From NCBI GenBank assembly GCA_001550305.1, contig LRTP01000506.1:1-64000 (forward strand): a stretch of DNA of 64,000 nucleotides. Direction: 5' to 3'. The translations under genes were made by a program, and so were the position numbers. Of the stretch, positions 26,766-42,243 are shown in pieces. Under the pieces are notes generated by a model. It was not told the origin of the DNA. It did no database searches and saw nothing but the letters and a program-made list of their open reading frames with translations. Positions within the stretch are counted from its first letter, which is position 1; each line of letters begins with the position of its first letter. The stretch comes from Streptomyces diastatochromogenes. GTDB lineage: Bacteria > Actinomycetota > Actinomycetes > Streptomycetales > Streptomycetaceae.

Positions 26766-27785
26766 CTACCGGGACACCGCTGCGGGTGCCGGATCCTTCG
26801 TGCCCACGCCGGTCGTGCGGAAGCTGGTCCGGAATGCGCCAGGTGTCACGCCGAGGTGTCGTACAAACGCTCTGCGGAGCGACTCGGGTGAGCCGAACCC
26901 GGTGCGCCGTGCCACTACCGGCAGGGAGTCGTCACCCGTCTCCAGCAGCGCCTGGGCGGCCTCCAGTCTGACCTGCTCGACGTAGCGGCCTGGAGTGGTT
27001 CCCACCTCTTCGTCGAAGAGCCGGGTCACGTGCCGGACGCTGACGCCTGCTCTGCGGGCCATGGCCGTGAGTGTGTGGTTGGCCCCGGGGTTCTCGGCGA
27101 CGGTGTCCAAGACCCGGCGGAGCATCTCCTGGCGCGTGTGCGGCGCTCGGGAGCGAACGCTGAACTGGGACTGGCCGCCCGGCCGTTGCATGAAGACGAC
27201 CATGTCCTTGGCGACCGACCGGGCGACCTCCGCACCGTAGTGATCTTCGACAAGGGCCAGGGACAGGTCGATACCGGCGCTGACACCTGCCGAAGTCATC
27301 ATCTGCCCGTCCCGTACGAAGATGGCGTCCGGCTGGACCCGCACGGACGGGAAACGAGAGGCCAGTTGCCGTGAATGCCGCCAGTGCGTCGCGGCGCGCC
27401 GGCCGTTGAGAAGTCCGGCTGCGGCCAGCAGAAATGCTCCGGTGCACACCGATGCCGTGCAGCGGCTCTTCTCGTTCAGTTGCCGGACCGTATCCAGCAG
27501 AGTGTCGTCCTTGATCAGCGTCTCCCATTCCGGGCCGCCCGGGATCACCAATACGTCGCACGGTTCTTGTACGTCGGCGGCGGACAGGTCGGCGCTGAGG
27601 CGGATCCCGGCGGAGGTGATGACCTCCGCCCCGTCCTCGGACGTGATCTGCACCCGATAGCGCCCGCCGAACTCGTTCGCCGTCGTGAACACCTCGATGG
27701 GGCCGGTCACATCGAGCAGCCGCACGCCCGGAAAGACAAGCACGGTCACGATGAGCGGATCCGTTGCCGGGCGCTTGTGGTTCAT
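26766..27785 (-). CDS. GlxA-type AraC regulator with DJ-1/PfpI sensor domain
   Basis: 339 residues. Residues 10-185 form a DJ-1/PfpI domain: VLVFPGVRLLDVTGPIEVF, VLVIPGGPEW, and the nucleophile elbow SVCTGAFLLAAAGLL with Cys. Residues 225-320 hold the AraC double helix-turn-helix, TLTAMARRAGVSVRHVTRLF and SLPVVARRTGFGSPESLRRAF. In this class the DJ-1 part senses a metabolite and is not an active amidase. The start ATG 27785 follows GGAGGC at seven bases. It is transcribed leftward; no target is adjacent, and an isonitrile-hydratase partner is not seen. Confidence 0.9.
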   Translation of the reverse strand: MNHKRPATDPLIVTVLVFPGVRLLDVTGPIEVFTTANEFGGRYRVQITSEDGAEVITSAGIRLSADLSAADVQEPCDVLVIPGGPEWETLIKDDTLLDTVRQLNEKSRCTASVCTGAFLLAAAGLLNGRRAATHWRHSRQLASRFPSVRVQPDAIFVRDGQMMTSAGVSAGIDLSLALVEDHYGAEVARSVAKDMVVFMQRPGGQSQFSVRSRAPHTRQEMLRRVLDTVAENPGANHTLTAMARRAGVSVRHVTRLFDEEVGTTPGRYVEQVRLEAAQALLETGDDSLPVVARRTGFGSPESLRRAFVRHLGVTPGAFRTSFRTTGVGTKDPAPAAVSR

Positions 27786-28185
27786 CGGATGCCTCCGGGC
27801 TGTGCGCGGTGCGGACACTGGATCGGCAGGGTGCTGGCGATGGCGTACCCGTCGGCATGCCGCCGCCGTATCCCCTCGGGATCGGGGCGAGAGCCTGGCG
27901 AACGGCCCAGGCGCCGACGTGGTCGACCCCGATTGCCGGCGCGCACTGCCGCGTGTCCTGCGGAACGCGGCAGGGCGTGGCCTGACAGGCGCCGCGGGCT
28001 GTACGAGCCCGGCCAAGGGGCCGTAACCGACCCCGGTCCGCCCAGTCGTCGGATCTCCGTGTCCTCATCATGTGCCGGTGACCGGGGCCGAAGCCACGAC
28101 CGGTTTGCTACCTGCTGGGAGCCACAGCCTCTCAGTCCGCCTTCCGCGGCGGCTGATGGACCCTCCATGTCTCCGGGCACGGCGC

Positions 28186-28330
28186 CGACGGTCTCCACAG
28201 CGACAGGCCCGGATACGCCACGCCGGTCGGGGCCATGAGCGGTTTCGCGCACCTGGTGGGCGAACCGGGCGGACCGCCCAGGAGGCCCCACACCGCGGCC
28301 GCCATCCGGATCACCCGCGCGTCGTGGTCG
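28186..28330 (+). pseudogene. Short CaiB/BaiF CoA-transferase-like fragment
   Basis: One frame in an otherwise empty 640-base gap reads SDRPGYATPVGAMSGFAHLV followed by GEPGGPPRRP. This matches the active-site neighbourhood of class III (CaiB/BaiF) CoA-transferases, where DRPG(F/Y), a catalytic-Asp-like region, MSG and GEP(D/G)GPP recur. It lacks both ends. The rest of 27786-28400 shows no gene. Confidence 0.4.
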
Positions 28331-28431
28331 TCATGGTTCTGGCCAACCGGGCCGCGCAGTGACGAACTGAGCGCGGCCGACTCAATCGCGGGCGTGGCGG
28401 GGTGGATTTACTAGGACGTCCAACTATATGC

Positions 28432-28590
28432 TCGTGAGGAATACCCGCGGTGCAGGGAAGCCGGTGTGAAACCGGCACGGTCCCGCCACTGTGACCGGGG
28501 AGTACGTCGTCGAGCAGGACGCCACTGACGAGCGAGATGTCGGGAAGGCGGACGGCGCGCGCTGATCCGGGAGTCAGGATACCGGCCGCG
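28432..28590 (+). promoter_or_regulatory. Cobalamin riboswitch
   Basis: All main landmarks are in order: a 5' element CGCGGTGCAGGGAAGCCGGT, the hairpin GCCGGTGTGAAACCGGC, the core CCGCCACTGTGACCGGGGAG (B12-box side), GCCACTGACG, a GGGAAGGCGG element, and the closing box GAGTCAGGATACC at 28571-28583. A GGACGTCC palindrome and a TATATG-like -10 lie just upstream at 28414-28429, a plausible promoter/operator. It would sense adenosylcobalamin and normally lowers expression of the downstream transcript when B12 is high. Downstream are a tandem-repeat ORF and, 412 bases from its end, the valine catabolic operon. No B12 biosynthesis or transport gene is in the window. Confidence 0.92.
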
Positions 28591-28630
28591 GTTTTGTTCC
28601 GTGTTGTCCACGAGGATGGAGCAGACACGC

Positions 28631-28885
28631 ATGGCATCAATGTGCACCCACGACCCTGGTGGTCCGCCCCGACGGGCATCGACTGCCGCGCGTCCCGCCT
28701 GGCAGGTACGGCCCATCACGCGTCCCGCCGGACGGGTACGGATCGTCACGCGTCCCGCCGGGCAGGTGTGGACCGTCACGCGTCCTGCCGGGCGGGTACG
28801 GATCGTCGCGCGTCCCGCGGTACGGACGCCGAGTCCCGAGCGCCCCGCGGATCGGGCACGCGCTCACGTGATCCGCGAGGTCTGA
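28631..28885 (+). CDS. Short Arg/Pro-rich repeat ORF between riboswitch and mmsA
   Basis: An 84-residue frame beginning ATGGCATC, 41 bases after the riboswitch, with a modest GAGGATGGAG ribosome site. Its middle is a decapeptide repeat of the kind VTRPAGRVRI, encoded by the 30-bp DNA repeat, and is extremely basic. It does not resemble CbtB or other B12-regulated products. Because the repeat period is a multiple of three, all frames stay open, so coding is not proven. It may be a leader ORF, a remnant of the gene once governed by the riboswitch, or non-coding. Confidence 0.3.
   Translation: MASMCTHDPGGPPRRASTAARPAWQVRPITRPAGRVRIVTRPAGQVWTVTRPAGRVRIVARPAVRTPSPERPADRARAHVIREV
28659..28838 (+). 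repeat. 30-bp tandem repeat array, about six units
   Basis: Four well-conserved units start at 28689, 28719, 28749 and 28779, each beginning CGCGTCC(C/T)GCC and ending near GGA(T/C)CGTC. Degenerate units flank them at 28659 and 28809. There are no spacers between units, so it is a minisatellite-like array. It lies inside the untranslated or leader region between the cobalamin riboswitch and mmsA. Confidence 0.9.
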
Positions 28886-29002
28886 ACGGCCTTTCTCTGA
28901 CCTATGCCGTCTCGCGCGGCCCCCGCACGCACAAGGCCCTGCCCGTGCGTGCCGGCGGTCGGCGCGCCATCCCCGGATCCCACCTGACGAGAGCAGGCAC
29001 CC

Positions 29003-30526
29003 ATGGTCCGTGAACACGACCGCGCCACCGTACGTGAGTTGAGCCATTTCATCGGCGGAAAGCACACCCCGGGAACATCAGGGTCCTACGGCGACGTCCA
29101 CGACCCCAACACGGGCGAGGTGCAGGCCCGCGTCCCGCTCGCCGACCGCGTCGAGACCGAGGCGGCGATCACCGTCGCCGCGGCGGCGCAGCGTGAGTGG
29201 GGCGAGTGGAATCCGCAACGCCGTGCCCGAGTCCTCCTCCGCTTCCTCCAAGTCGTCGAGGGCGAGCGGGACGCGCTCGCCCGGCTGCTCTCCTCCGAGC
29301 ACGGCAAGACGGTCGCCGACGCGCACGGCGACATCCAACGCGGCCTGGAGGTGGTGGAGTTCGCCGCCGGGATCCCGCATCTGCTGAAGGGGGAGTTCAG
29401 CGACAACGCCGGCACCGGCATCGACGTCCACTCCTTGCGCGTCCCGATCGGCGTGGTGGCCGGCATCACCCCATTCAACTTCCCCGCGATGATCCCTCTG
29501 TGGAAGGCGGCTCCCGCGTTGGCCTGCGGCAACGCGTTCGTCCTCAAGCCCTCCGAGCGCGACCCGTCCGTACCACTGCGGCTCGCCGAACTCTTCCTCG
29601 AGGCCGGCCTGCCGCCGGGCGTCCTGAACGTCGTCCACGGCGGCAAGGAGACCGTCGACACTCTCCTCGAAGACCCCCGCGTCGGCGCGCTCGGCTTCGT
29701 CGGCTCCACCCCGATCGCCGCGTACGTCTACGCCACCGCCGCGGCCCACGGCAAGCGCGCCCAGTGCTTCGGCGGCGCCAAGAACCACATGATCGTGATG
29801 CCGGACGCCGACCTCGATCAGGCCGTGGACGCCCTGATCGGAGCCGGGTACGGCTCGGCGGGGGAGCGCTGTATGGCGATCTCCGTCGCCGTCCCGGTCG
29901 GCGAGGACACCGCCGACGCCCTGGTCGCCCGTCTGAAGGAGCGCATCGGCTCGCTCCGGATCGGCCGCAGTGACGACCCCGAGGCGGACTTCGGCCCCCT
30001 GGTCGGGCGGGACGCCGTCGACCGGGTCCGCCGTTACGTCGACCTCGGTGTCGAGGAGGGCGCGGAACTCGTCGTCGACGGACGGGACTTCGTCCTGCCC
30101 GGGCACGAGAACGGCTTCTTCGCCGGTGCCTCCTTGTTCGACCGGGTCACCCCCGCGATGCGCATCCACCAGGAGGAGATCTTCGGGCCGGTCCTGACGG
30201 TGGTTCGCGCCGCGGACTACGAGGAGGCCCTGCGGCTTCCCAGCGAGCACGTCTACGGAAACGGTGTCGCGATCTTCACCCGGGACGGCGACACCGCCCG
30301 CGACTTCACCCGCCGGGTGAACACCGGCATGGTCGGCGTGAACGTGCCGATCCCCGTCCCGGTCGCCCACCACACCTTCGGCGGCTGGAAGCGTTCCGGC
30401 TTCGGCGACCTCAACCAGCACGGTCCGGACGCGATCCGCTTCTACACCCGTACCAAGACCGTCACCTCGCGCTGGCCCTCGGGCCTTCGGGAAGGCGCGA
30501 GCTTCACCATCCCGACGATGGGCTGA
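29003..30526 (+). CDS. mmsA: CoA-acylating methylmalonate-semialdehyde dehydrogenase
   Basis: 507 residues, typical for the family. The aldehyde dehydrogenase fold has the MMSDH-specific TPFNFPAMIPLW, the nucleotide region GFVGSTPIAAYVYATAAAHG, and the catalytic Cys in GSAGERCMAIS. GGAKNHMIVMPDADL is also diagnostic. It converts (S)-methylmalonate semialdehyde and CoA to propionyl-CoA with NAD+, the last step of valine catabolism, also used for thymine. It is the first gene of a five-gene operon; the acyl-CoA dehydrogenase ATG is five bases after its stop. A cobalamin riboswitch lies upstream. Confidence 0.95.
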   Translation: MVREHDRATVRELSHFIGGKHTPGTSGSYGDVHDPNTGEVQARVPLADRVETEAAITVAAAAQREWGEWNPQRRARVLLRFLQVVEGERDALARLLSSEHGKTVADAHGDIQRGLEVVEFAAGIPHLLKGEFSDNAGTGIDVHSLRVPIGVVAGITPFNFPAMIPLWKAAPALACGNAFVLKPSERDPSVPLRLAELFLEAGLPPGVLNVVHGGKETVDTLLEDPRVGALGFVGSTPIAAYVYATAAAHGKRAQCFGGAKNHMIVMPDADLDQAVDALIGAGYGSAGERCMAISVAVPVGEDTADALVARLKERIGSLRIGRSDDPEADFGPLVGRDAVDRVRRYVDLGVEEGAELVVDGRDFVLPGHENGFFAGASLFDRVTPAMRIHQEEIFGPVLTVVRAADYEEALRLPSEHVYGNGVAIFTRDGDTARDFTRRVNTGMVGVNVPIPVPVAHHTFGGWKRSGFGDLNQHGPDAIRFYTRTKTVTSRWPSGLREGASFTIPTMG

Positions 30527-30531
30527 GCGCG

Positions 30532-31680
30532 ATGACCACCACCCTGCTCACCGAGGACCAACAGGCCCTCGTCGAAACGACTCTGGACTTCGCCCAGGAC
30601 CACCTCGCGCCGCACGCCCTGGACTGGGACCGGCACAAGCACTTCCCGCTCGACGTCCTGCGCAAAGCCGCCGGGCTGGGCCTCGGCGGTGTGTACGTCC
30701 GTGAGGAGGTGGGCGGCTCGGGCCTCACCCGTGCCGACGGCGTCCTTGTCTTCGAGACCCTGGCCTCGGGCTGTCCATCCATCGCGGGCTATCTCTCCAT
30801 CCACAACATGGTCGCCTGGATGATCGACCAGTACGGCGAGCCGGCTCAGCGGGAGCGATGGCTGCCCCGGCTCTGCGCCATGGAGGACCTGGCGAGCTAC
30901 TGCCTGACCGAACCGGGCGCCGGATCGGACGCCGCCGCTCTGCGCACCTGTGCCGTCCGCGACGGCGGCCACTACGTCCTGACCGGGGTCAAGCAGTTCA
31001 TCTCCGGCGCGGGAGCCTCCCAGGTGTACGTCGTCCTGGCGCGCACCGGCGCCGACGGCCCGCACGGCATCTCCGCGTTCCTCGTCGACAAGGACGACCG
31101 CGGCCTCTCCTTCGGCCCCAACGAGCGGAAGATGGGCTGGAACGCCCAGCCCACCCGCCAGGTGATCCTGGACGGCGTCCGACTGTCCGCCGACCGGCTG
31201 CTCGGCCACGAGGGTGAGGGTTTCCGCATCGCCATGAACGGCCTCAACGGCGGACGCCTCGGCATCGCCGCCTGCTCCCTCGGCGGCGCCCGCAACGCCC
31301 TCGACCGCAGCCTGGCCCATCTCGCCGACCGGGAGGCGTTCGGCGGGCGTCTCCTCGACGCGCAGGCGCTCCAGTTCCGGCTGGCGGACATGGCGACCGA
31401 ACTGGCCGCCGCCCGCGCGCTGGTCCACCAGGCCGCCCAGGCACTGGACCGCGGCGATCCACAGGCGCCGCACCTGTGCGCGATGGCCAAGCGGTTCGCC
31501 ACCGACACCGGATACTCCGTCGCCGACCGGGCTCTGCAACTGCACGGCGGCTACGGCTACCTGAGCGAGTACGGCATTGAGAAGATCGTCCGCGACCTGC
31601 GGGTCCACCAGATCCTGGAAGGAACCAACGAGATCATGCGCGTCATCGTGGCCCGTGGCCTGACGGAGGCATTCGGATGA
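30532..31680 (+). CDS. Acyl-CoA dehydrogenase, probably isobutyryl-CoA dehydrogenase
   Basis: 382 residues with the complete ACAD fold. The FAD/substrate region is YCLTEPGAGSDAAALRT, the middle strand domain has KQFISGAGASQVYVVLART, and the C-terminal helices carry LQLHGGYGYLSEYGIEKIVR and QILEGTNEIMRVIVARGL. FAD-dependent alpha,beta-dehydrogenation of isobutyryl-CoA to methacrylyl-CoA is inferred from operon context (mmsA, 3-HIB-CoA hydrolase, 3-HIB dehydrogenase). Its TGA overlaps the next ATG (ATGA 31677-31680). Electrons would pass to ETF. Confidence 0.93.
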   Translation: MTTTLLTEDQQALVETTLDFAQDHLAPHALDWDRHKHFPLDVLRKAAGLGLGGVYVREEVGGSGLTRADGVLVFETLASGCPSIAGYLSIHNMVAWMIDQYGEPAQRERWLPRLCAMEDLASYCLTEPGAGSDAAALRTCAVRDGGHYVLTGVKQFISGAGASQVYVVLARTGADGPHGISAFLVDKDDRGLSFGPNERKMGWNAQPTRQVILDGVRLSADRLLGHEGEGFRIAMNGLNGGRLGIAACSLGGARNALDRSLAHLADREAFGGRLLDAQALQFRLADMATELAAARALVHQAAQALDRGDPQAPHLCAMAKRFATDTGYSVADRALQLHGGYGYLSEYGIEKIVRDLRVHQILEGTNEIMRVIVARGLTEAFG

Positions 31681-32780
31681 CCGACACAGACGACACCGTG
31701 CCGCCGACCGGTACCGACGACTCCCTGCTGCTGCGTACCGAGGGGCGTGCCGCATATCTGACCCTCAACCGGCCCAAGGTGCTCAACGCCCTCACCCACG
31801 CGATGGTCCGCCGCATCGACGTCGCGCTGACGGCCTGGGAGCACGACCCGGCCGTGGAGACCGTCGTCCTCACCGGCGCGGGGGAGCGGGGCCTGTGCGC
31901 TGGCGGCGACATCCGTGCCATCCACGACGACGCCCGGAATGGGGACGGGACGGCGTCGGCGGCCTTCTGGCGGGACGAGTACCGGCTCAACGCCCGCATC
32001 GCCCACTACCCGAAGCCGTACGTCGCCGTGATGGACGGCATCGTCATGGGCGGCGGCGTCGGCGTCTCATCCCACGGCAGCGTCCGGATCGTCACCGAAC
32101 GCTCGAAGATCGCCATGCCGGAGACCGGCATCGGCTTCGTACCGGACGTCGGGGGCACCTACCTGCTCGCCCTCGCGCCGGGGGAACTCGGCACGCACCT
32201 GGCGCTGACCGGATCCCCGGCGGGCGCGGGTGACGCCCTGCTGTGCGGGCTCGCCGACCTCTACGTACCGTCGGACTCCCTGCCAGGGCTGCTCGCTGCC
32301 CTCGCCCACGCGCCGGTACGACAGGTCCTGGGCGAGTACGCACGACAGGAACCGTCCGGTGAACTCGCGGCAGCACGGCCCTGGATCGACGCCTGCTACG
32401 CCGCCGACACCGTCGAGGAGATCATCGACCGCCTCCTCGAACACGGCGGTAGCGCGGCCAAGGAGACCGCCGAGACCCTGCTCACCAGATCCCCCACCTC
32501 CCTCAAGGTCACCCTCGCGGCACTCCGCAGAGCCCGGCGGCTCGGTCCGCTGGAGAACGTGCTGGACCAGGAGTACCGAGTCTCCTGCGCGGGCCTCACC
32601 GCGCCCGACCTGGTGGAGGGCATCCGCGCCCAGGTGATCGACAAGGACCGCAGCCCGCGCTGGACACCGCCGACGCTCGCCGAGGTCACGGATGCGGACG
32701 TCGAGCGCTTCTTCACGCCCCTCGGCGAGCGGGAACTCGGCCTCGCCGCATCCGACACCACGCAGGAGGTGCCCTGGTGA
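31677..32780 (+). CDS. 3-hydroxyisobutyryl-CoA hydrolase (crotonase superfamily)
   Basis: 367 residues, the longer HIBCH/ECH_2 type rather than the 260-residue hydratase. The crotonase core has LTLNRPKVLNALTHAMV, oxyanion-hole segments LTGAGERGLCAGGDIRAIHD and DGIVMGGGVGVSSHG, and the hydrolase-typical MPETGIGFVPDVGGTYLLA. The C-terminal extension (LTRSPTSLKVTLAALRRAR, then EYRVSCAGL) is also HIBCH-like. It releases 3-hydroxyisobutyrate from its CoA ester, guarding against toxic methacrylyl-CoA. It is coupled by overlaps to both neighbours. Confidence 0.92.
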   Translation: MTDTDDTVPPTGTDDSLLLRTEGRAAYLTLNRPKVLNALTHAMVRRIDVALTAWEHDPAVETVVLTGAGERGLCAGGDIRAIHDDARNGDGTASAAFWRDEYRLNARIAHYPKPYVAVMDGIVMGGGVGVSSHGSVRIVTERSKIAMPETGIGFVPDVGGTYLLALAPGELGTHLALTGSPAGAGDALLCGLADLYVPSDSLPGLLAALAHAPVRQVLGEYARQEPSGELAAARPWIDACYAADTVEEIIDRLLEHGGSAAKETAETLLTRSPTSLKVTLAALRRARRLGPLENVLDQEYRVSCAGLTAPDLVEGIRAQVIDKDRSPRWTPPTLAEVTDADVERFFTPLGERELGLAASDTTQEVPW

Positions 32781-33673
32781 GCAGGACCGTCGCGTTCATC
32801 GGGCTGGGACACATGGGCGGCCCCATGGCCGCCAACCTGGTCGAGGCCGGCCACCGGGTACGCGGTTACGACCTGTCACCCACATCCCTGAAGGCAGCGG
32901 CCGACGCGGGTGTCGAGCCCGCGGCATCCGCGACGGAGGCGGTGGCGGGCACGGAGGTGGTGATCACCATGCTGCCTGCCGGACGGCATGTGCTGGAGCT
33001 GTACCAGGACATCGTCGGGGCTGCCCGGCCCGGCACCCTCTTCGCCGACTGCTCGACCATCGATGTCGCCGACGCCCGCACCGCCCACGACAGGGCGGTC
33101 TCGGCCGGGATGCGGGCCCTGGACGCGCCGGTCTCCGGCGGAGTCGTCGGCGCCGAGGCGGCCACCCTCACCTTCATGGCCGGCGGCGGCGAGGCGGAGT
33201 ACGCCGAGGCCGAACCCCTGCTCGCCGCCATGGGCAGGAAGGTGGTCCACTGCGGCGGCGCGGGCGCCGGACAGGCCGCGAAGATCTGCAACAACATGAT
33301 CCTCGGCATTTCGATGATCGCTGTCAGCGAGGCCTTCGTACTCGGCGAGAGCCTGGGCCTGTCCCACCAGGCGCTGTACGACGTGGCCTCCACGGCGTCC
33401 GGCCAGTGCTGGGCACTCAGCGTCAACTGCCCGGTGCCGGGGCCGGTGCCGACCAGCCCCGCGAACCGTGACTACCGCCCCGGCTTCGCCGCCCCGCTCA
33501 TGGCCAAGGACCTGGGCCTGGCGGCCGACGCGGCCCGGGCCGGTGGCGTCAGGGCCGAACTCGGTCTGCGCGCGGCCGAGTTGTACGCCGCATACGCCCA
33601 GGGAGCAGGCACCGCCGAGGACTTCTCGGGCATCGTACGGACGATCAGGGACCAGAGCGGAGAACAGGCATGA
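32777..33673 (+). CDS. mmsB: 3-hydroxyisobutyrate dehydrogenase
   Basis: 298 residues. The NAD-binding Rossmann start is [20 protein letters not shown]; the substrate motif is [19 protein letters not shown]. The catalytic Lys lies in [20 protein letters not shown], and a C-terminal [18 protein letters not shown] matches the family. It oxidises 3-hydroxyisobutyrate to methylmalonate semialdehyde, the substrate of the first gene in the operon. The start is GTG in an ATG/GTG overlap with the preceding stop (GGTGAG), and its TGA overlaps the next ATG. Confidence 0.94.
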
Positions 33674-34473
33674 CCACCGACACGACACCGGCCGCGACAG
33701 ACGCGTACGACACCATTCTCGTTGAACGCAAGGGCCGCACCGCCCTGCTCACCCTCAACCGGCCCCACGCCCTCAACGCCCTCAACCTCCAGGTCATGAA
33801 CGAGGTCGTCGCGGCCACCGAAGCCCTCGACCGCGACCCGGACGTGGGCTGCATCGTGCTCACCGGATCGGCGAAGGCGTTCGCGGCCGGAGCCGACATC
33901 AAGGAAATGCGGCCGCAGAGCTATCTGGACATGTACCTCAGCGACTGGTTCACCGCCTGGGACCGGCTCGGACAGCTGCGCACGCCGACCGTGGCGGCGG
34001 TCGCCGGGTACGCGCTCGGCGGCGGGTGCGAACTCGCGATGCTCTGCGACATCCTCCTCGCGGCCGACACCGCCGTCTTCGGCCAGCCGGAGATCAAACT
34101 CGGTGTCATCCCCGGCATCGGCGGCTCCCAGCGGCTCACGCGCGCGGTCGGCAAGGCCAAGGCCATGGAACTGTGCCTGACCGGCCGCACCATGGACGCG
34201 GCCGAAGCCGAACGGGCCGGCCTGGTCTCGCGCGTGGTGCCCGCCGACGAACTGCTCGGCGAGGCACTCGCGGTCGCCGAGACCGTGGCGGGCATGTCGC
34301 TGCCGGTCGCCATGATGGCGAAGGAGGCCGTCGCCCGCGCCTTCGAGACGACACTCGCCGAGGGCGTCCGCTTCGAACGCCGCCTCTTCCACGCGGTGTT
34401 CGCCACCGCCGACCAGAAGGAGGGCATGAGCGCCTTCATCGACAAGCGCCCGCCCCACTTCACCCACCACTGA
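33670..34473 (+). CDS. Enoyl-CoA hydratase
   Basis: 267 residues, standard crotonase length. The oxyanion hole is at [18 protein letters not shown] and [15 protein letters not shown]. Both catalytic glutamates appear present, in GGGCELAM and [18 protein letters not shown], as in true hydratases. In this operon it should hydrate methacrylyl-CoA to 3-hydroxyisobutyryl-CoA, closing the path from isobutyryl-CoA to propionyl-CoA. It is the last gene, coupled to mmsB by ATGA and followed 18 bases later by a strong hairpin. Confidence 0.93.
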
Positions 34474-39001: not shown

Positions 39002-40030
39002 TCATCCCAGCTTCGGGAGACGAGGGAGCGATCGGGGTAGCCCGAATGACGGCAGCACGCTGTTTTCGAAGCGGGTCATGGCGCAGATCCGGTCGCCGGT
39101 GAGGGTCAGGACGTAGAGGCCGGTCCCGTGGCTGATGCCGTTGGGGGCGCGCAGGTAGGCGCCGAACGCCGGCTGACCGTTGGCTCGTGTCGGGATGAGG
39201 TCGAACCTGCGATCTGCGCGGAAAATGCTGGCGCAGAAGCGGGCCACGATGTCTCGGCCCTGGTATTCGAAGGGCATCGGTGGCATCGACATGAAGACGT
39301 CATCGGTGAGAAGTGCCACCAGTGCGTCCAGGTCGGCGGACTCCCATGCGCGGACGAATTTCGCCACGATCGCATCCTCGGAGGGTGAGTCGGAGGCGGG
39401 CGGCGGTTCTCGATCGTCGGTCGTGGGACGTCGGTGGTGCAGGCTGGCGCGCGCCCGTTTGAGGGCGCTTTTGACCGACTCGACGCTCGCGTCCAGCATG
39501 TCCGCCACCTCGGCGGCGTGGAACCCGAGGACGTCGCGCAGGACGAGCACGGCGAGCTGGTGAGGCGGCAGGAGCTGGAGGGCGGTCATGAAGGCCAGGG
39601 AGATGGATTCGGTCTGCTCGAAGCGGGCCTCCGGGTCGAGCGGTGCGTCGATGACACCCTCAAACAGGGCGTTGGGAATGGGCTCGAGCCAGACGACCTC
39701 ACCGAGCCGGGTGGGCTCGGGCGGTTCCACATGGGGCACGTCCCACTCCTTGGCCTGGCGTCGGCCGGCCGACCGGCGCGCGTTGAGGCACCGGTTGGTG
39801 GCGATCCGGTACAGCCAGGTACGCAGCGAGGCGCGTCCCTCGAACCCTGCGAAGCCTTGCCAGGCGGCCAGCAGCGTGTCCTGCAGGACGTCCTCGGCGT
39901 CCTGGAACGATCCGAGCATCCGGTAGCAGTGCACGTGCAGCTCCCGGTGGTACGGCTCGGTCAGTTGCCGGAACGCCTCGCCGTCCCCGGCCCGCGCCCT
40001 GGAGATCAAGTCGGCTGCCGCTTCGCCCAT
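39002..40030 (-). CDS. ECF-type RNA polymerase sigma factor with C-terminal SnoaL-like domain
   Basis: 342 residues. Sigma region 2 is LHVHCYRMLGSFQDAEDVLQ through SLRTWLYRIATNRCLNARR (about residues 20-95). Region 4 is LLPPHQLAVLVLRDVLGFHA followed by VADMLDASVESVKSALKRAR (about 150-210). Residues 225-342 form a SnoaL/NTF2-like domain (VAKFVRAWESADLDALVALL, FEYQGRDIVARFC). Such tails replace an anti-sigma factor in several ECF groups and modulate activity. The start ATG 40030 gives the family N-terminus. It diverges from the reductase gene at 40178, which may be a target. Confidence 0.92.
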   Translation of the reverse strand: MGEAAADLISRARAGDGEAFRQLTEPYHRELHVHCYRMLGSFQDAEDVLQDTLLAAWQGFAGFEGRASLRTWLYRIATNRCLNARRSAGRRQAKEWDVPHVEPPEPTRLGEVVWLEPIPNALFEGVIDAPLDPEARFEQTESISLAFMTALQLLPPHQLAVLVLRDVLGFHAAEVADMLDASVESVKSALKRARASLHHRRPTTDDREPPPASDSPSEDAIVAKFVRAWESADLDALVALLTDDVFMSMPPMPFEYQGRDIVARFCASIFRADRRFDLIPTRANGQPAFGAYLRAPNGISHGTGLYVLTLTGDRICAMTRFENSVLPSFGLPRSLPRLPKLG

Positions 40031-40177
40031 TCTCGGGTCACCTCTTCCCGCATCTTGTCGCCCTTCTTGTACGGACACCGGCGGAGGGGCGAAGGGGGCG
40101 GTTGGCGGGCGCCCCTTTCTCGATTTCTCGGTGTCTACCTCAGTGGTAAGTGACCACACAGCACAGGGAGAAGCACC

Positions 40178-40771
40178 ATGGGAAAGATCATCATCAGCGA
40201 GAACGTCTCGCTCGACGGTGTCGTCCAGGATCCGACCGGTGAGGAGGGCTTCAGGCTGGGTGGCTGGTACCTCCAGATGGGAGACAACGACCGCGAGGCG
40301 TGGGCGAAGCTCTTGCTCGCCGAGGCCCTGGGCGCCGAGGCCCTGCTCCTCGGTCGGCGGACCGACGAGTGGTTCGCCACGCGGTGGCTGTCCCGTACCG
40401 GCGAGTGGGCGGACAGGTTGAACGGCCTGCCCAAGTACGTCGTGTCCGCCACCCTCCAAGAGCCCAAGTGGAGCGACTCGACGGCATCCAAGGGCAGGGT
40501 GCTCAAGGGGGACGTGGTGGACGAGGTCTCGAAGCTGAAGCAGGAGCTGGATGGCGACCTCGTCGTATACGCAAGCAGCCGGCTCGTGCACACGCTGATG
40601 GAGCACGACCTCGTCGACGAACTGCGGCTCACCGTGTTCCCGGTCGTGCTCGGGGCCGGCGAGCGGCTCTTCGGCGAGACCAGCGACAAGAAGCCCATGC
40701 GTCTCGTCCACGCCCGGACCGTCGGCGACGGCCTCGCCTTCCTCACCTACCAGCCGGTCCAAGACGCCTAG
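40178..40771 (+). CDS. RibD C-terminal/dihydrofolate reductase-like protein
   Basis: 197 residues: MGKIIISENVSLDGVVQDPT, then EALLLGRRTDEWFATRW, YVVSATLQEPKW, GDLVVYASSRLVHTLMEHDL and DELRLTVFPVVLGAGERLF. This is the standard order of the RibD_C/DHFR-like reductase family, which uses NADPH. Its substrate is not known, and these proteins are not true folate reductases. The start follows GGGAGAAGCACC. It is divergent from the ECF sigma gene by 147 bases and is followed by a hairpin at 40823. Confidence 0.88.
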   Translation: MGKIIISENVSLDGVVQDPTGEEGFRLGGWYLQMGDNDREAWAKLLLAEALGAEALLLGRRTDEWFATRWLSRTGEWADRLNGLPKYVVSATLQEPKWSDSTASKGRVLKGDVVDEVSKLKQELDGDLVVYASSRLVHTLMEHDLVDELRLTVFPVVLGAGERLFGETSDKKPMRLVHARTVGDGLAFLTYQPVQDA

Positions 40772-40822
40772 CTGTCGCTGCGTCGACGTCGGCCGGCGAG
40801 CACCTCCGTGGGGGGTGAGGGG

Positions 40823-40863
40823 GCCGCCCTCCACGGGGCATGCTGGTGGGACCGGAGGGCGGC
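40823..40863 (+). terminator. Hairpin between the convergent reductase and OYE genes
   Basis: A ten-base perfect stem GCCGCCCTCC (40823-40832) with GGAGGGCGGC (40854-40863) and a 21-base loop. It lies 51 bases after the reductase stop and could serve both strands. Confidence 0.55.
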
Positions 40864-41010
40864 GCGTCTGTTCCCCCGGCCTTCGCCGCCGGGCGGCCAG
40901 CTCCCGGGCCCGGCTGGCGATGGAGAGCCAGGAGCACGTCCGAGCCCGGCACGACGCGATGAGCGCGGTGTGGAGCGGACGGTGTCGGCCCGCTCCGCCA
41001 ACAGTCTGTT

Positions 41011-42243
41011 CTAGGACGCCGACAACCACGCGCGGTAGCGGCGCAGTGCCCGTCGCTGCTGACGCTGCTCGGTGAGAAGGGCGTACGCGGGGCGGGTGTT
41101 GGGCTTGGGACGGCTTCCGCGGGCGATGCGGCGCAGCTGGTGACGGACCTGCGCCATGCTCGCGGCGGAAGCGAGGGCTTTGTCGGACCAGGTCACCGGC
41201 CGCAGTTGCCGGTCCGCCTCGCGGCCGTGGCGCCAGCGGTCGGGCAGGTCCGGGGTGACGGCGAGGGCGGTGCCCATCCCGACGAGTGCCACGCCACTGG
41301 CGAGGACCAGTTCGGCGGTATCGCGCCGGGTGATGCCGCCGGTGAGCATCAGCGGGAGAGGACTGGTCTTGACCAGGTCCTTCGCCAGGTCCAGGAAGTA
41401 CGCCTCACGGGCCTGGGTGCGCGCATCGGCGGGGCGGCCGGACATCGCGGGGCTCTCGTAACTGCCGCCGGACAGTTCCACCAGGTCGACGCCGAGCGGT
41501 TCGAGCATCGCGATCACCTGCCGAGCATCGGCGGCGTCGAATCCGCCCCGCTGGAAATCCGCGGAGTTGAGCTTCACCGCGACCGCGAAGGACGGCGAGA
41601 CGGCGGCGCGCACGGCCCGGACGACGTCCAACAGCATCCGAGCCCGGTTTTCCAGGGACCCGCCCCACTCGTCGGTGCGTTGGTTGACCAGCGGGGACAG
41701 GAACTGTGAAAGCAGGTAACCATGCGCGGCGTGGACCTCCACACCGTCAAACCCCGCCTTCTCGGCGCGGTGGGCCGTGACCGCGTACCGCGTCACAGTG
41801 GCCTCGATCTGCTCGGGGGTCATGGCGACAGGGCGACCGAAACGGCTGCTGTGCTTTCCCAGGTCGACCCCCACCGCGGACGGGCCCCACACGACGCCGG
41901 GCATGTCCGCCTGGATCTGGCGGCCTGGGTGATTGATCTGCATCCACATCGCTCCGCCGCCGGACTTGCCGGCGTTGGCCCACTCGGTGAACGGCTCCAG
42001 CGGCGCGGCATCGTCGAGTACGACTCCGGCGGGGCCGGTCAGTGCTTCGGCGTGGACCATGACGTTGCCGGTGATCAGGAGTCCGGTGCCGCCGGTGGCC
42101 CAGCGCCGGTACAGCGACAGCAGCTGTCCATCGGGCAGCTGGCCGTCGCCGGCCATGTTCTCCTCCATGGCCGCCTTCGCGATCCGGTTGCCCAATACCT
42201 GCCCAGAGCGCAGGGACAGCGGTGAGAAAAGCTCGCTGGCCAT
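41011..42243 (-). CDS. NADH:flavin oxidoreductase, old yellow enzyme family
   Basis: 410 residues forming a TIM barrel with FMN. Diagnostic segments are NRIAKAAMEENMAGDG, MWMQINHPGRQ, the substrate His and Gly run FDGVEVHAAHGYLLSQFLSP, NQRTDEWGGSLENRARML, and the phosphate-binding end MLTGGITRRDTAELVL followed by GVALVGMGTALAV. It reduces activated alkenes of enones with NAD(P)H. The start MASELFSPL at 42243 is chosen because GAGAGGAGAAT lies just upstream; ATG 42261 would sit within that site. The TetR gene at 42333 diverges and its operators lie between, suggesting repression relieved by an enone-like inducer. Confidence 0.9.
   Translation of the reverse strand: MASELFSPLSLRSGQVLGNRIAKAAMEENMAGDGQLPDGQLLSLYRRWATGGTGLLITGNVMVHAEALTGPAGVVLDDAAPLEPFTEWANAGKSGGGAMWMQINHPGRQIQADMPGVVWGPSAVGVDLGKHSSRFGRPVAMTPEQIEATVTRYAVTAHRAEKAGFDGVEVHAAHGYLLSQFLSPLVNQRTDEWGGSLENRARMLLDVVRAVRAAVSPSFAVAVKLNSADFQRGGFDAADARQVIAMLEPLGVDLVELSGGSYESPAMSGRPADARTQAREAYFLDLAKDLVKTSPLPLMLTGGITRRDTAELVLASGVALVGMGTALAVTPDLPDRWRHGREADRQLRPVTWSDKALASAASMAQVRHQLRRIARGSRPKPNTRPAYALLTEQRQQRRALRRYRAWLSAS

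What the first reader, a model, noticed from the sequence alone, without database searches (positions are those of the whole stretch)
28414..34473. Cobalamin riboswitch placed ahead of a valine/isobutyrate catabolic operon
The sequence shows a complete B12 riboswitch (28432-28590) on the same strand as a five-gene coupled operon starting at 29003. Valine breakdown ends in propionyl-CoA, which is normally used through B12-dependent methylmalonyl-CoA mutase, so B12 control of this operon would make metabolic sense. Cobalamin riboswitches usually govern B12 synthesis, uptake or B12-independent isoenzymes. The 412-base gap, the repeat array and a possible leader ORF leave open whether the operon is the real target.
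Basis: partly seen in the sequence, partly recalled or inferred. Interest (0 to 1): 0.78.

Follow-up and report, generated by a model that had tools for sequence, protein, structure and literature searches.

The report
B12 riboswitch on valine-breakdown operon
A vitamin B12 sensor in the RNA sits in front of a set of valine-breakdown genes in some Streptomyces, apparently so that this B12-free route is switched on when B12 runs short; the link was noted once before, but its wider logic seems new.

Summary
A full cobalamin riboswitch (RF00174, 90.7 bits, 28431-28604) lies directly ahead of a five-gene isobutyryl-CoA-to-propionyl-CoA operon. The operon is very likely its target: an orthologous mmsA occurs in 34 of 295 genomes of the genus, and 33 of the 34 have the riboswitch ahead of it with little but a short leader ORF between. 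The association is already in print: Lee et al. 2022 saw riboswitch-linked premature termination before such a gene in S. griseus. New here: (1) just before the aptamer lies TTACTAGGACGTCC, a palindrome half otherwise found ahead of B12-dependent acyl-CoA mutases (27 of 30 loci); (2) a conserved leader ORF begins at 28631, seen in 35 of 35 loci, and the 'repeat array' is an in-frame expansion of it; (3) within about 20 kb, 24 of 34 loci carry other B12-independent genes (metE, aceAB, prpDBC, nrdEF), against 0 of 10 control loci. B12 response and direction remain untested.

The parts
28407..28429 (+). Probable promoter/operator element TTTACTAGGACGTCCAACTATAT; the left half is the palindrome half found ahead of acyl-CoA mutases, the right half drifts into a -10-like TATAT
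   Evidence: 18-mer 28409-28426 occurs once in the window; present in 29 of the 30 loci, own included; TTACTAGGACGTCCNA in 271 of 295 genus genomes, reversed-pattern control 0. Promoter role inferred
28431..28604 (+). Cobalamin riboswitch aptamer
   Evidence: RF00174, 90.7 bits, model 1-189
28596..28622 (+). Predicted hairpin GUUCCGU/AUGGAGC that would mask the leader ORF's Shine-Dalgarno; a competing stem CGUGU/ACACG (28600-28604/28625-28629) is possible
   Evidence: RNAalifold on 20 sequences: pairs kept in 19 or 20 of 20, hardly any variation so no covariation support; single-strand folds of 4 sequences no better than shuffles
28631..28885 (+). Leader ORF (uORF), 84 codons here, 14-30 codons in 33 of 35 loci; MAPVxTHDPGDPA-type start
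   Evidence: 35 of 35 loci, found by the conserved start block; pN/pS 0.46 in frame against 1.40 and 0.90 in the other frames, 2 of 300 column shuffles as low, 25 distinct sequences
28689..28818 (+). 30-bp tandem repeat (4.3 copies) that lengthens the leader ORF by 10-residue units
28886..29002 (+). C-rich spacer between leader ORF stop and mmsA; its last ~35 bases (CCATCCCCGGATC..ACCTGACGAGAGCAGG) are conserved
   Evidence: Pooled spacers of 35 loci 47% C, 30% G, ends approximate; terminator scan of 28300-29100 found 0; conservation by eye
29003..30526 (+). mmsA, CoA-acylating methylmalonate-semialdehyde dehydrogenase
   Evidence: TIGR01722 633.9 bits, cut-off 448.5
30532..31680 (+). acyl-CoA dehydrogenase, probably isobutyryl-CoA dehydrogenase by context
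   Evidence: Acyl-CoA_dh domains; no NCBIfam model above its cut-off
31677..32780 (+). 3-hydroxyisobutyryl-CoA hydrolase
   Evidence: NF004127 455.1 bits, cut-off 274
32777..33673 (+). 3-hydroxyisobutyrate dehydrogenase
   Evidence: TIGR01692 378.6 bits, cut-off 291.6
33670..34473 (+). enoyl-CoA hydratase, probably methacrylyl-CoA hydratase by context
   Evidence: NF004517 446.4 bits, cut-off 396

Best explanation
The window holds a Streptomyces operon that oxidises isobutyryl-CoA (from valine) to propionyl-CoA without B12. It is controlled by two signals in series: a regulator of unknown identity acting on the promoter palindrome that also precedes B12-dependent acyl-CoA mutases (IcmA-like and IcmF), and then a B12 riboswitch acting as an OFF switch on the nascent RNA. 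When B12 is plentiful, the bound aptamer lets the Shine-Dalgarno of the leader ORF be masked; the leader ORF is not translated and transcription stops early (perhaps through Rho in the C-rich spacer), so isobutyryl-CoA is left to the B12-dependent mutase. When B12 is short, the leader ORF is translated, RNA polymerase reads through and the five enzymes are made. Shown by computation: aptamer, operon, conservation of the order, shared palindrome, leader ORF, clustering with B12-independent genes. Published in S. griseus: premature termination before such a gene, varying with growth phase. Inferred: B12 binding and its direction, Shine-Dalgarno masking, Rho, substrate partition, existence and identity of the regulator.
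For: Aptamer. mmsA ortholog at 84% or more in 34 of 295 genus genomes, one more at 75%, the other listed matches at most 58% (capped list); aptamer above the Rfam cut-off ahead of it in 33 of 34. Five-gene order in 32 of 33 inspected loci. Palindrome ahead of mutases in 27 of 30 fetched loci (23 IcmA-like, 4 IcmF) and ahead of riboswitch-mmsA in the other 3. In 26 non-Streptomyces actinobacterial loci a similar palindrome (1-7 mismatches of 20; 17 with at most 5) lies 13-146 bp upstream of the mmsA match, leaving no room for an aptamer, so the riboswitch looks inserted between an old operator and mmsA. Leader ORF in 35 of 35 loci with a coding signal. Other riboswitches of the own genome precede genes that I recognised by eye as metE, cobD-cobQ and nrdA. 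Neighbours within about 20 kb: metE 16, aceA/aceB 12, methylcitrate genes 8, nrdEF 3, any 24 of 34; 0 of 10 control loci. Genome-wide: isocitrate lyase 27 of 34 against 5 of 34, PrpB 14 of 34 against 0 of 34. S. griseus premature termination.
Against: No B12-response data were found for this locus; the direction rests on the published interpretation in another species and on analogy. The Shine-Dalgarno hairpin is nearly invariant, so it has no covariation support, and its folding energy is no better than shuffles. Leader ORFs do not always help: in M. tuberculosis one suppresses metE and another is essential for ppe2. Propionyl-CoA still needs an outlet: the own genome has no PrpD match and no PrpB above cut-off, and 16 to 20 of the 34 lack an identifiable methylcitrate cycle. 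The window itself has none of the B12-independent neighbours, and 10 of 34 loci (window included) have none. Genome G010 keeps the operon with a decayed aptamer, so the switch is dispensable there. The control genomes were hand-picked and the 34 are related, so the Fisher values overstate independence. The mutase's isobutyryl-CoA substrate is inferred for the IcmA-like copies.
Confidence: 0.7

Rival explanations
1. Same OFF switch, different purpose: the operon supplies propionyl-CoA and methylmalonyl-CoA for polyketides and odd-chain lipids when the B12-dependent mutase cannot make methylmalonyl-CoA from succinyl-CoA.
For: 26 of 34 loci have no methylcitrate genes nearby, so propionyl-CoA must often go elsewhere; Lee et al. 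raise the link to polyketide precursors.
Against: The shared palindrome with isobutyryl-CoA-type mutases and the clustering with catabolic B12-independent genes fit disposal of isobutyryl-CoA better.
Confidence: 0.15
2. One reading: B12 turns the operon ON so that valine is broken down only when B12-dependent methylmalonyl-CoA mutase can use the propionyl-CoA.
For: The pathway end product fits (enzymes).
Against: Published S. griseus data were interpreted as repression by B12; the two M. tuberculosis B12 riboswitches studied with leader ORFs are OFF switches; many neighbours are B12-independent genes.
Confidence: 0.08
3. The riboswitch RNA and leader ORF form a separate short transcription unit; mmsA has its own promoter in the spacer.
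For: The last 35 bases before mmsA are strongly conserved; no transcript data for this strain.
Against: The order is kept in 33 of 34 loci; no promoter-like site found in 28300-29100 (which also does not report the proposed palindrome promoter); describes a start site and, in stationary phase, transcription of the gene without premature termination.
Confidence: 0.05
4. Relic: a riboswitch left by rearrangement of a neighbouring B12-controlled gene such as metE, without function here.
For: metE, with a riboswitch on the opposite strand between it and mmsA, is close in some loci; one genome has a decayed aptamer and one a decayed mmsA.
Against: The aptamer core and the 30-base leader-start block are almost invariant in the aligned sequences (20, 34).
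Confidence: 0.02

Closest known systems
Cobalamin riboswitch before the methylmalonate-semialdehyde dehydrogenase gene SGR_RS05925 of Streptomyces griseus (Lee et al. 2022, PMC8914203; section 23 and passages read)
   Same: Same riboswitch family, same first gene, downstream valine-degradation genes; premature transcript observed
   Different: The passages read report termination by growth phase only; nothing there on a leader ORF, shared palindrome, paralogy, distribution or gene neighbourhood. Identity of their locus with this one was not tested by sequence here.
ppe2 B12 riboswitch with translated leader ORF of Mycobacterium tuberculosis (Kipkorir et al. 2024, PMC11260477; abstract and passages read)
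   Same: Aptamer followed by a leader ORF whose start region is masked by a predicted hairpin; OFF switch; premature termination
   Different: Different target; there the leader ORF runs up to ppe2 and works mainly by termination-reinitiation, here at least 66 bases separate leader ORF and mmsA
B12 riboswitches on B12-independent isoenzymes (metE; nrdABS of Streptomyces, Borovok et al. 2006, recalled, seen only as a citation)
   Same: Riboswitch on a gene set that replaces a B12-dependent enzyme; riboswitches ahead of metE-, nrdA- and nrdEF-type genes seen here
   Different: Those replace one enzyme; this is a five-step catabolic route with no one-to-one B12-dependent counterpart

Membership tests
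Cobalamin riboswitch (RF00174) | Covariance-model match above gathering score | tested here: met
   90.7 bits against 31.5, full length; 32 further orthologous loci 47-99 bits, one ortholog (G010) without a match
Cobalamin riboswitch (RF00174) | Paired regions supported by compensatory changes | tested here: met
   6 of 55 predicted pairs have both sides changed in at least one of 20 sequences: 5 in one helix (columns 81-86/185-190), 1 in another; the rest mostly invariant
Cobalamin riboswitch (RF00174) | Binds cobalamin and alters expression | not testable with these tools
   Needs in-line probing or reporter assays
Class I versus class II (AdoCbl or MeCbl preference) | Ligand selectivity and peripheral structure | not tested
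   Not assigned
Leader-ORF-coupled B12 riboswitch (ppe2 type) | Conserved ORF right after the aptamer with Shine-Dalgarno | tested here: met
   35 of 35 loci; start block -24 to +5 invariant in 34 sequences apart from one position. Translation itself not testable here
Leader-ORF-coupled B12 riboswitch (ppe2 type) | Leader ORF overlaps or abuts the regulated gene (termination-reinitiation) | tested here: not met
   Gap 66-174 bases in 35 loci, counted to the position aligned with the window's mmsA start
Valine/isobutyryl-CoA distal catabolic operon | Isobutyryl-CoA dehydrogenase, methacrylyl-CoA hydratase, HIBYL-CoA hydrolase, HIBADH, MMSDH in one operon | tested here: met
   Three of five above curated cut-offs of models named for the step (mmsA, hydrolase, HIBADH); dehydrogenase and hydratase assigned by context

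The most novel reading that the evidence does not exclude
Some Streptomyces keep a chromosomal 'B12-independence' neighbourhood (metE, glyoxylate-shunt aceAB, methylcitrate prpDBC, class Ib nrdEF, and this operon) in which the isobutyryl-CoA branch point is set by two inputs: an operator shared with B12-dependent isobutyryl-CoA-type mutases and a leader-ORF-coupled B12 riboswitch that was inserted between the old operator and mmsA.
Probability: 0.45. Interest if true: 0.75.

Novelty: new variant of a known kind. Interest (0 to 1): 0.6.

Why it matters
It would extend B12 riboswitch control from single B12-free isoenzymes to a whole catabolic route, and make testable how B12 supply steers isobutyryl-CoA, propionyl-CoA and methylmalonyl-CoA, building blocks of polyketide antibiotics. 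It also points to an unidentified regulator (a MarR-family gene lies beside the mutase in 22 of 23 loci) and to a cluster of B12-independent genes that can be examined genome-wide.

Tried and rejected
Long-range pairing of the leader ORF (GGTGATCCGG) with the block before mmsA (CCGGATC..ACCTG): looked good by eye, but duplex energies against shuffled partners gave mean z -0.1 over 35 loci with a wrongly placed start and -0.34 over 33 loci with the start corrected, control +0.63 (two loci, L163 and L049, dropped because the start was not matched). Not supported.

L5-L13 kissing loop: by eye no convincing partner; only a 4-bp UGGC/GCCA option at the start codon; not computed, left open.

Intrinsic-terminator and sigma-70 promoter scans: nothing in 28300-29100. 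A B12 gene deleted between riboswitch and mmsA: none seen in the inspected loci.

Literature: searches pairing 'cobalamin riboswitch' or 'riboswitch' with methylmalonate semialdehyde dehydrogenase, valine, isobutyryl-CoA mutase, mmsA, uORF, premature, also MarR, TAGGACGTCC and methylcitrate terms. I opened passages of six papers (PMC9600662, PMC8914203, PMC8079986, PMC11260477, PMC6767563, PMC11494915); only PMC8914203 showed this link. The others listed were seen as listings only, so they may hold it; the library lacks most subscription journals. The TAGGACGTCC hits look unrelated from their titles.

Loci set aside from counts: G012 (riboswitch kept, mmsA decayed, leader start ACG), G175 (promoter element and decayed riboswitch, no mmsA), G126 and G203 (riboswitch-like match elsewhere, no mmsA ortholog), G022 (75% mmsA, no riboswitch pattern and no other operon gene found), G149 and the second G048 locus (mmsA fragments only in the stretch); L051 and L052 taken as duplicates of L185 and L167 by equal contig length.
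Full report
Observation. The only Rfam match at gathering threshold in the window is a full-length cobalamin riboswitch at 28431-28604 (+), 90.7 bits. The five ORFs from 29003 to 34473 are mmsA, an acyl-CoA dehydrogenase, 3-hydroxyisobutyryl-CoA hydrolase, 3-hydroxyisobutyrate dehydrogenase and an enoyl-CoA hydratase: together the distal valine route from isobutyryl-CoA to propionyl-CoA. The genus is taken to be Streptomyces because the nearest named genomes (86-90% mmsA identity) are Streptomyces; the genome tool's own groups are unnamed.

Is the operon the target? A DNA search with 28380-29020 over 295 genomes of the genus gave matches in 288, most of them short and confined to the riboswitch core; the strong ones cover the promoter element, the aptamer and the start of the leader ORF, then skip a variable stretch and resume at the mmsA start. 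RF00174 passes its cut-off ahead of mmsA in 33 of those 34 (own; 28 short loci and 4 longer ones). The exception, G010, keeps the promoter element and a leader ORF but its aptamer no longer matches. In 33 inspected loci (31 of the set plus two named genomes, Streptomyces sp. CB01249 and S. pyxinicus) the gene order is the same; one (L195) lacks a detectable fifth gene. The own genome has three MMSDH genes above the curated cut-off; this one scores lowest of the three, so it is an extra copy.

Prior report. Lee et al. 2022 (PMC8914203; section 23 and passages read) found in S. [quoted passage not shown] The bare association is therefore known. I did not compare their sequence with this one.

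Promoter element. Directly before the aptamer, 29 of the 30 loci (own included) carry TACTAGGACGTCCAACTA or a one-base variant of its end; the 18-mer occurs once in the window. TTACTAGGACGTCCNA occurs in 271 of 295 genomes, with no hits for the reversed control pattern. Of the 30 loci that the tool fetched from these, 23 lead into an acyl-CoA mutase large subunit, 4 into the fused isobutyryl-CoA mutase IcmF and 3 into riboswitch-mmsA. The mutase of the own genome matches the methylmalonyl-CoA mutase N-terminal family and is nearest in the PDB to 2-hydroxyisobutyryl-CoA mutase; an isobutyryl-CoA substrate is inferred. IcmF was assigned by NCBIfam from one of the 4 (best of its matches but below a cut-off set for the whole protein, as only a third was given), the other 3 by likeness. 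A MarR-family gene lies beside the mutase in 22 of 23 loci and is a candidate regulator. In 27 other actinobacterial mmsA loci without the riboswitch-mmsA order the best match to the 20-base palindrome within 450 bp upstream had at most 5 mismatches in 17, 6-7 in 9, and 10 in one (S. blattellae); five alphaproteobacterial controls had 9-10. At 6-7 mismatches some loci had equally good matches elsewhere, so those nine are weaker. The 26 palindromes start 13-146 bp before the mmsA match, too close for an aptamer between. Rfam was run on 9 of the 27: 8 had no riboswitch, and Kribbella (L064) has one on the opposite strand that leads into metE. So the riboswitch and leader ORF look inserted between an older operator and mmsA.

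Leader ORF. An ORF starts at 28631, 27 bases past the aptamer's last matched base, and its counterpart was found by the conserved start block in 35 of 35 loci; 33 have 14-30 codons, the window 84 and L175 174. The block from -24 to +5 is invariant over 34 aligned sequences apart from one position (L189 left out for an insertion). Codons 4-12 of 25 distinct sequences show pN/pS 0.46 in frame against 1.40 and 0.90 out of frame; 2 of 300 column shuffles were as low. The window's repeat array is an in-frame expansion of this ORF, not a separate feature. RNAalifold pairs GUUCCGU with AUGGAGC, covering the Shine-Dalgarno, but without covariation, and single folds of four sequences are no better than shuffles. 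The spacer to mmsA is 47% C and 30% G pooled over 35 loci, with no intrinsic terminator in 28300-29100; Rho is a plausible but unproven terminator. Kipkorir et al. 2024 (PMC11260477; abstract and passages) give a precedent of a B12 OFF riboswitch acting through a leader ORF (ppe2), and a contrary case in which a leader ORF suppresses the gene (metE).

Neighbourhood. In stretches reaching up to about 20 kb on each side (shorter at contig ends; the window 29 and 35 kb; G152 only 9 kb in all), metE is found in 16 of 34 loci, aceA and aceB in 12, methylcitrate genes in 8 (prpC 8, prpD and prpB 7), class Ib nrdEF in 3, and at least one of these in 24 of 34; the B12-dependent mutase in none. About 20 kb on each side of 10 diverged mmsA paralogs, 6 in genomes with the operon and 4 without, had none. 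Identities of the query proteins were checked. A riboswitch precedes the nrd genes of G277, and riboswitches on the opposite strand lie between metE and mmsA in some loci. Across 34 genomes with the operon and 34 hand-picked without, isocitrate lyase passes its cut-off in 27 against 5, PrpB in 14 against 0, and a PrpD match (all below that model's cut-off) occurs in 18 against 1 (Fisher p 1e-7, 2e-5, 5e-6, not corrected for relatedness). Two control genomes (G014, G045) have PrpB-like matches of 309 and 290 bits, below the cut-off of 354. The window itself has none of these neighbours; the own genome has isocitrate lyase but no PrpB above cut-off and no PrpD match. metE, aceAB, prpDBC and nrdEF are, from general knowledge, B12-free counterparts of MetH, the ethylmalonyl-CoA pathway, methylmalonyl-CoA mutase and NrdJ.

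Interpretation. The simplest reading is that the operon is a B12-independent outlet for isobutyryl-CoA, co-controlled with the B12-dependent mutases by the palindrome and silenced by B12 through the riboswitch. What is shown is anatomy, conservation and context; the B12 response, its direction at this locus, the regulator and the termination mechanism are inferred.

Noticed in passing
L184:5700-7230 (genome G203): The promoter-element core and a riboswitch (81.8 bits) stand ahead of a lipoate-protein-ligase-like gene (PF21948), beside genes that look like cobF and metE; this genome lacks the mmsA ortholog. G126 (L182) looks similar in gene order but was not tested with Rfam.
   Followed up: partly
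L226:4780-5330 (genome G010): Natural loss of the aptamer with promoter element, leader ORF and at least four operon genes kept: a ready comparison strain.
   Followed up: partly
L229 / L031 (genome G012): Riboswitch still scores 85.6 bits but mmsA is reduced to a fragment and the leader start codon is ACG.
   Followed up: partly
window 26766-28016 (-): DJ-1/PfpI plus AraC-type regulator upstream, divergent from the riboswitch; not examined in relatives.
   Followed up: no
window 39002-41029 (-): ORF with sigma-70 regions 2 and 4 and a SnoaL-like domain (ECF sigma factor type).
   Followed up: no
L230:1214-11790 (genome G277): RamB/ScfR-type regulator divergent from prpD-prpB-prpC, then riboswitch-led nrdEF on the other strand, all within about 20 kb of mmsA.
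   Followed up: partly
L006 (G000:C724), L005 (G000:C722): Two further riboswitch matches in the own genome (28.3 bits, below cut-off, and 37.8 bits) whose target genes were not established.
   Followed up: no
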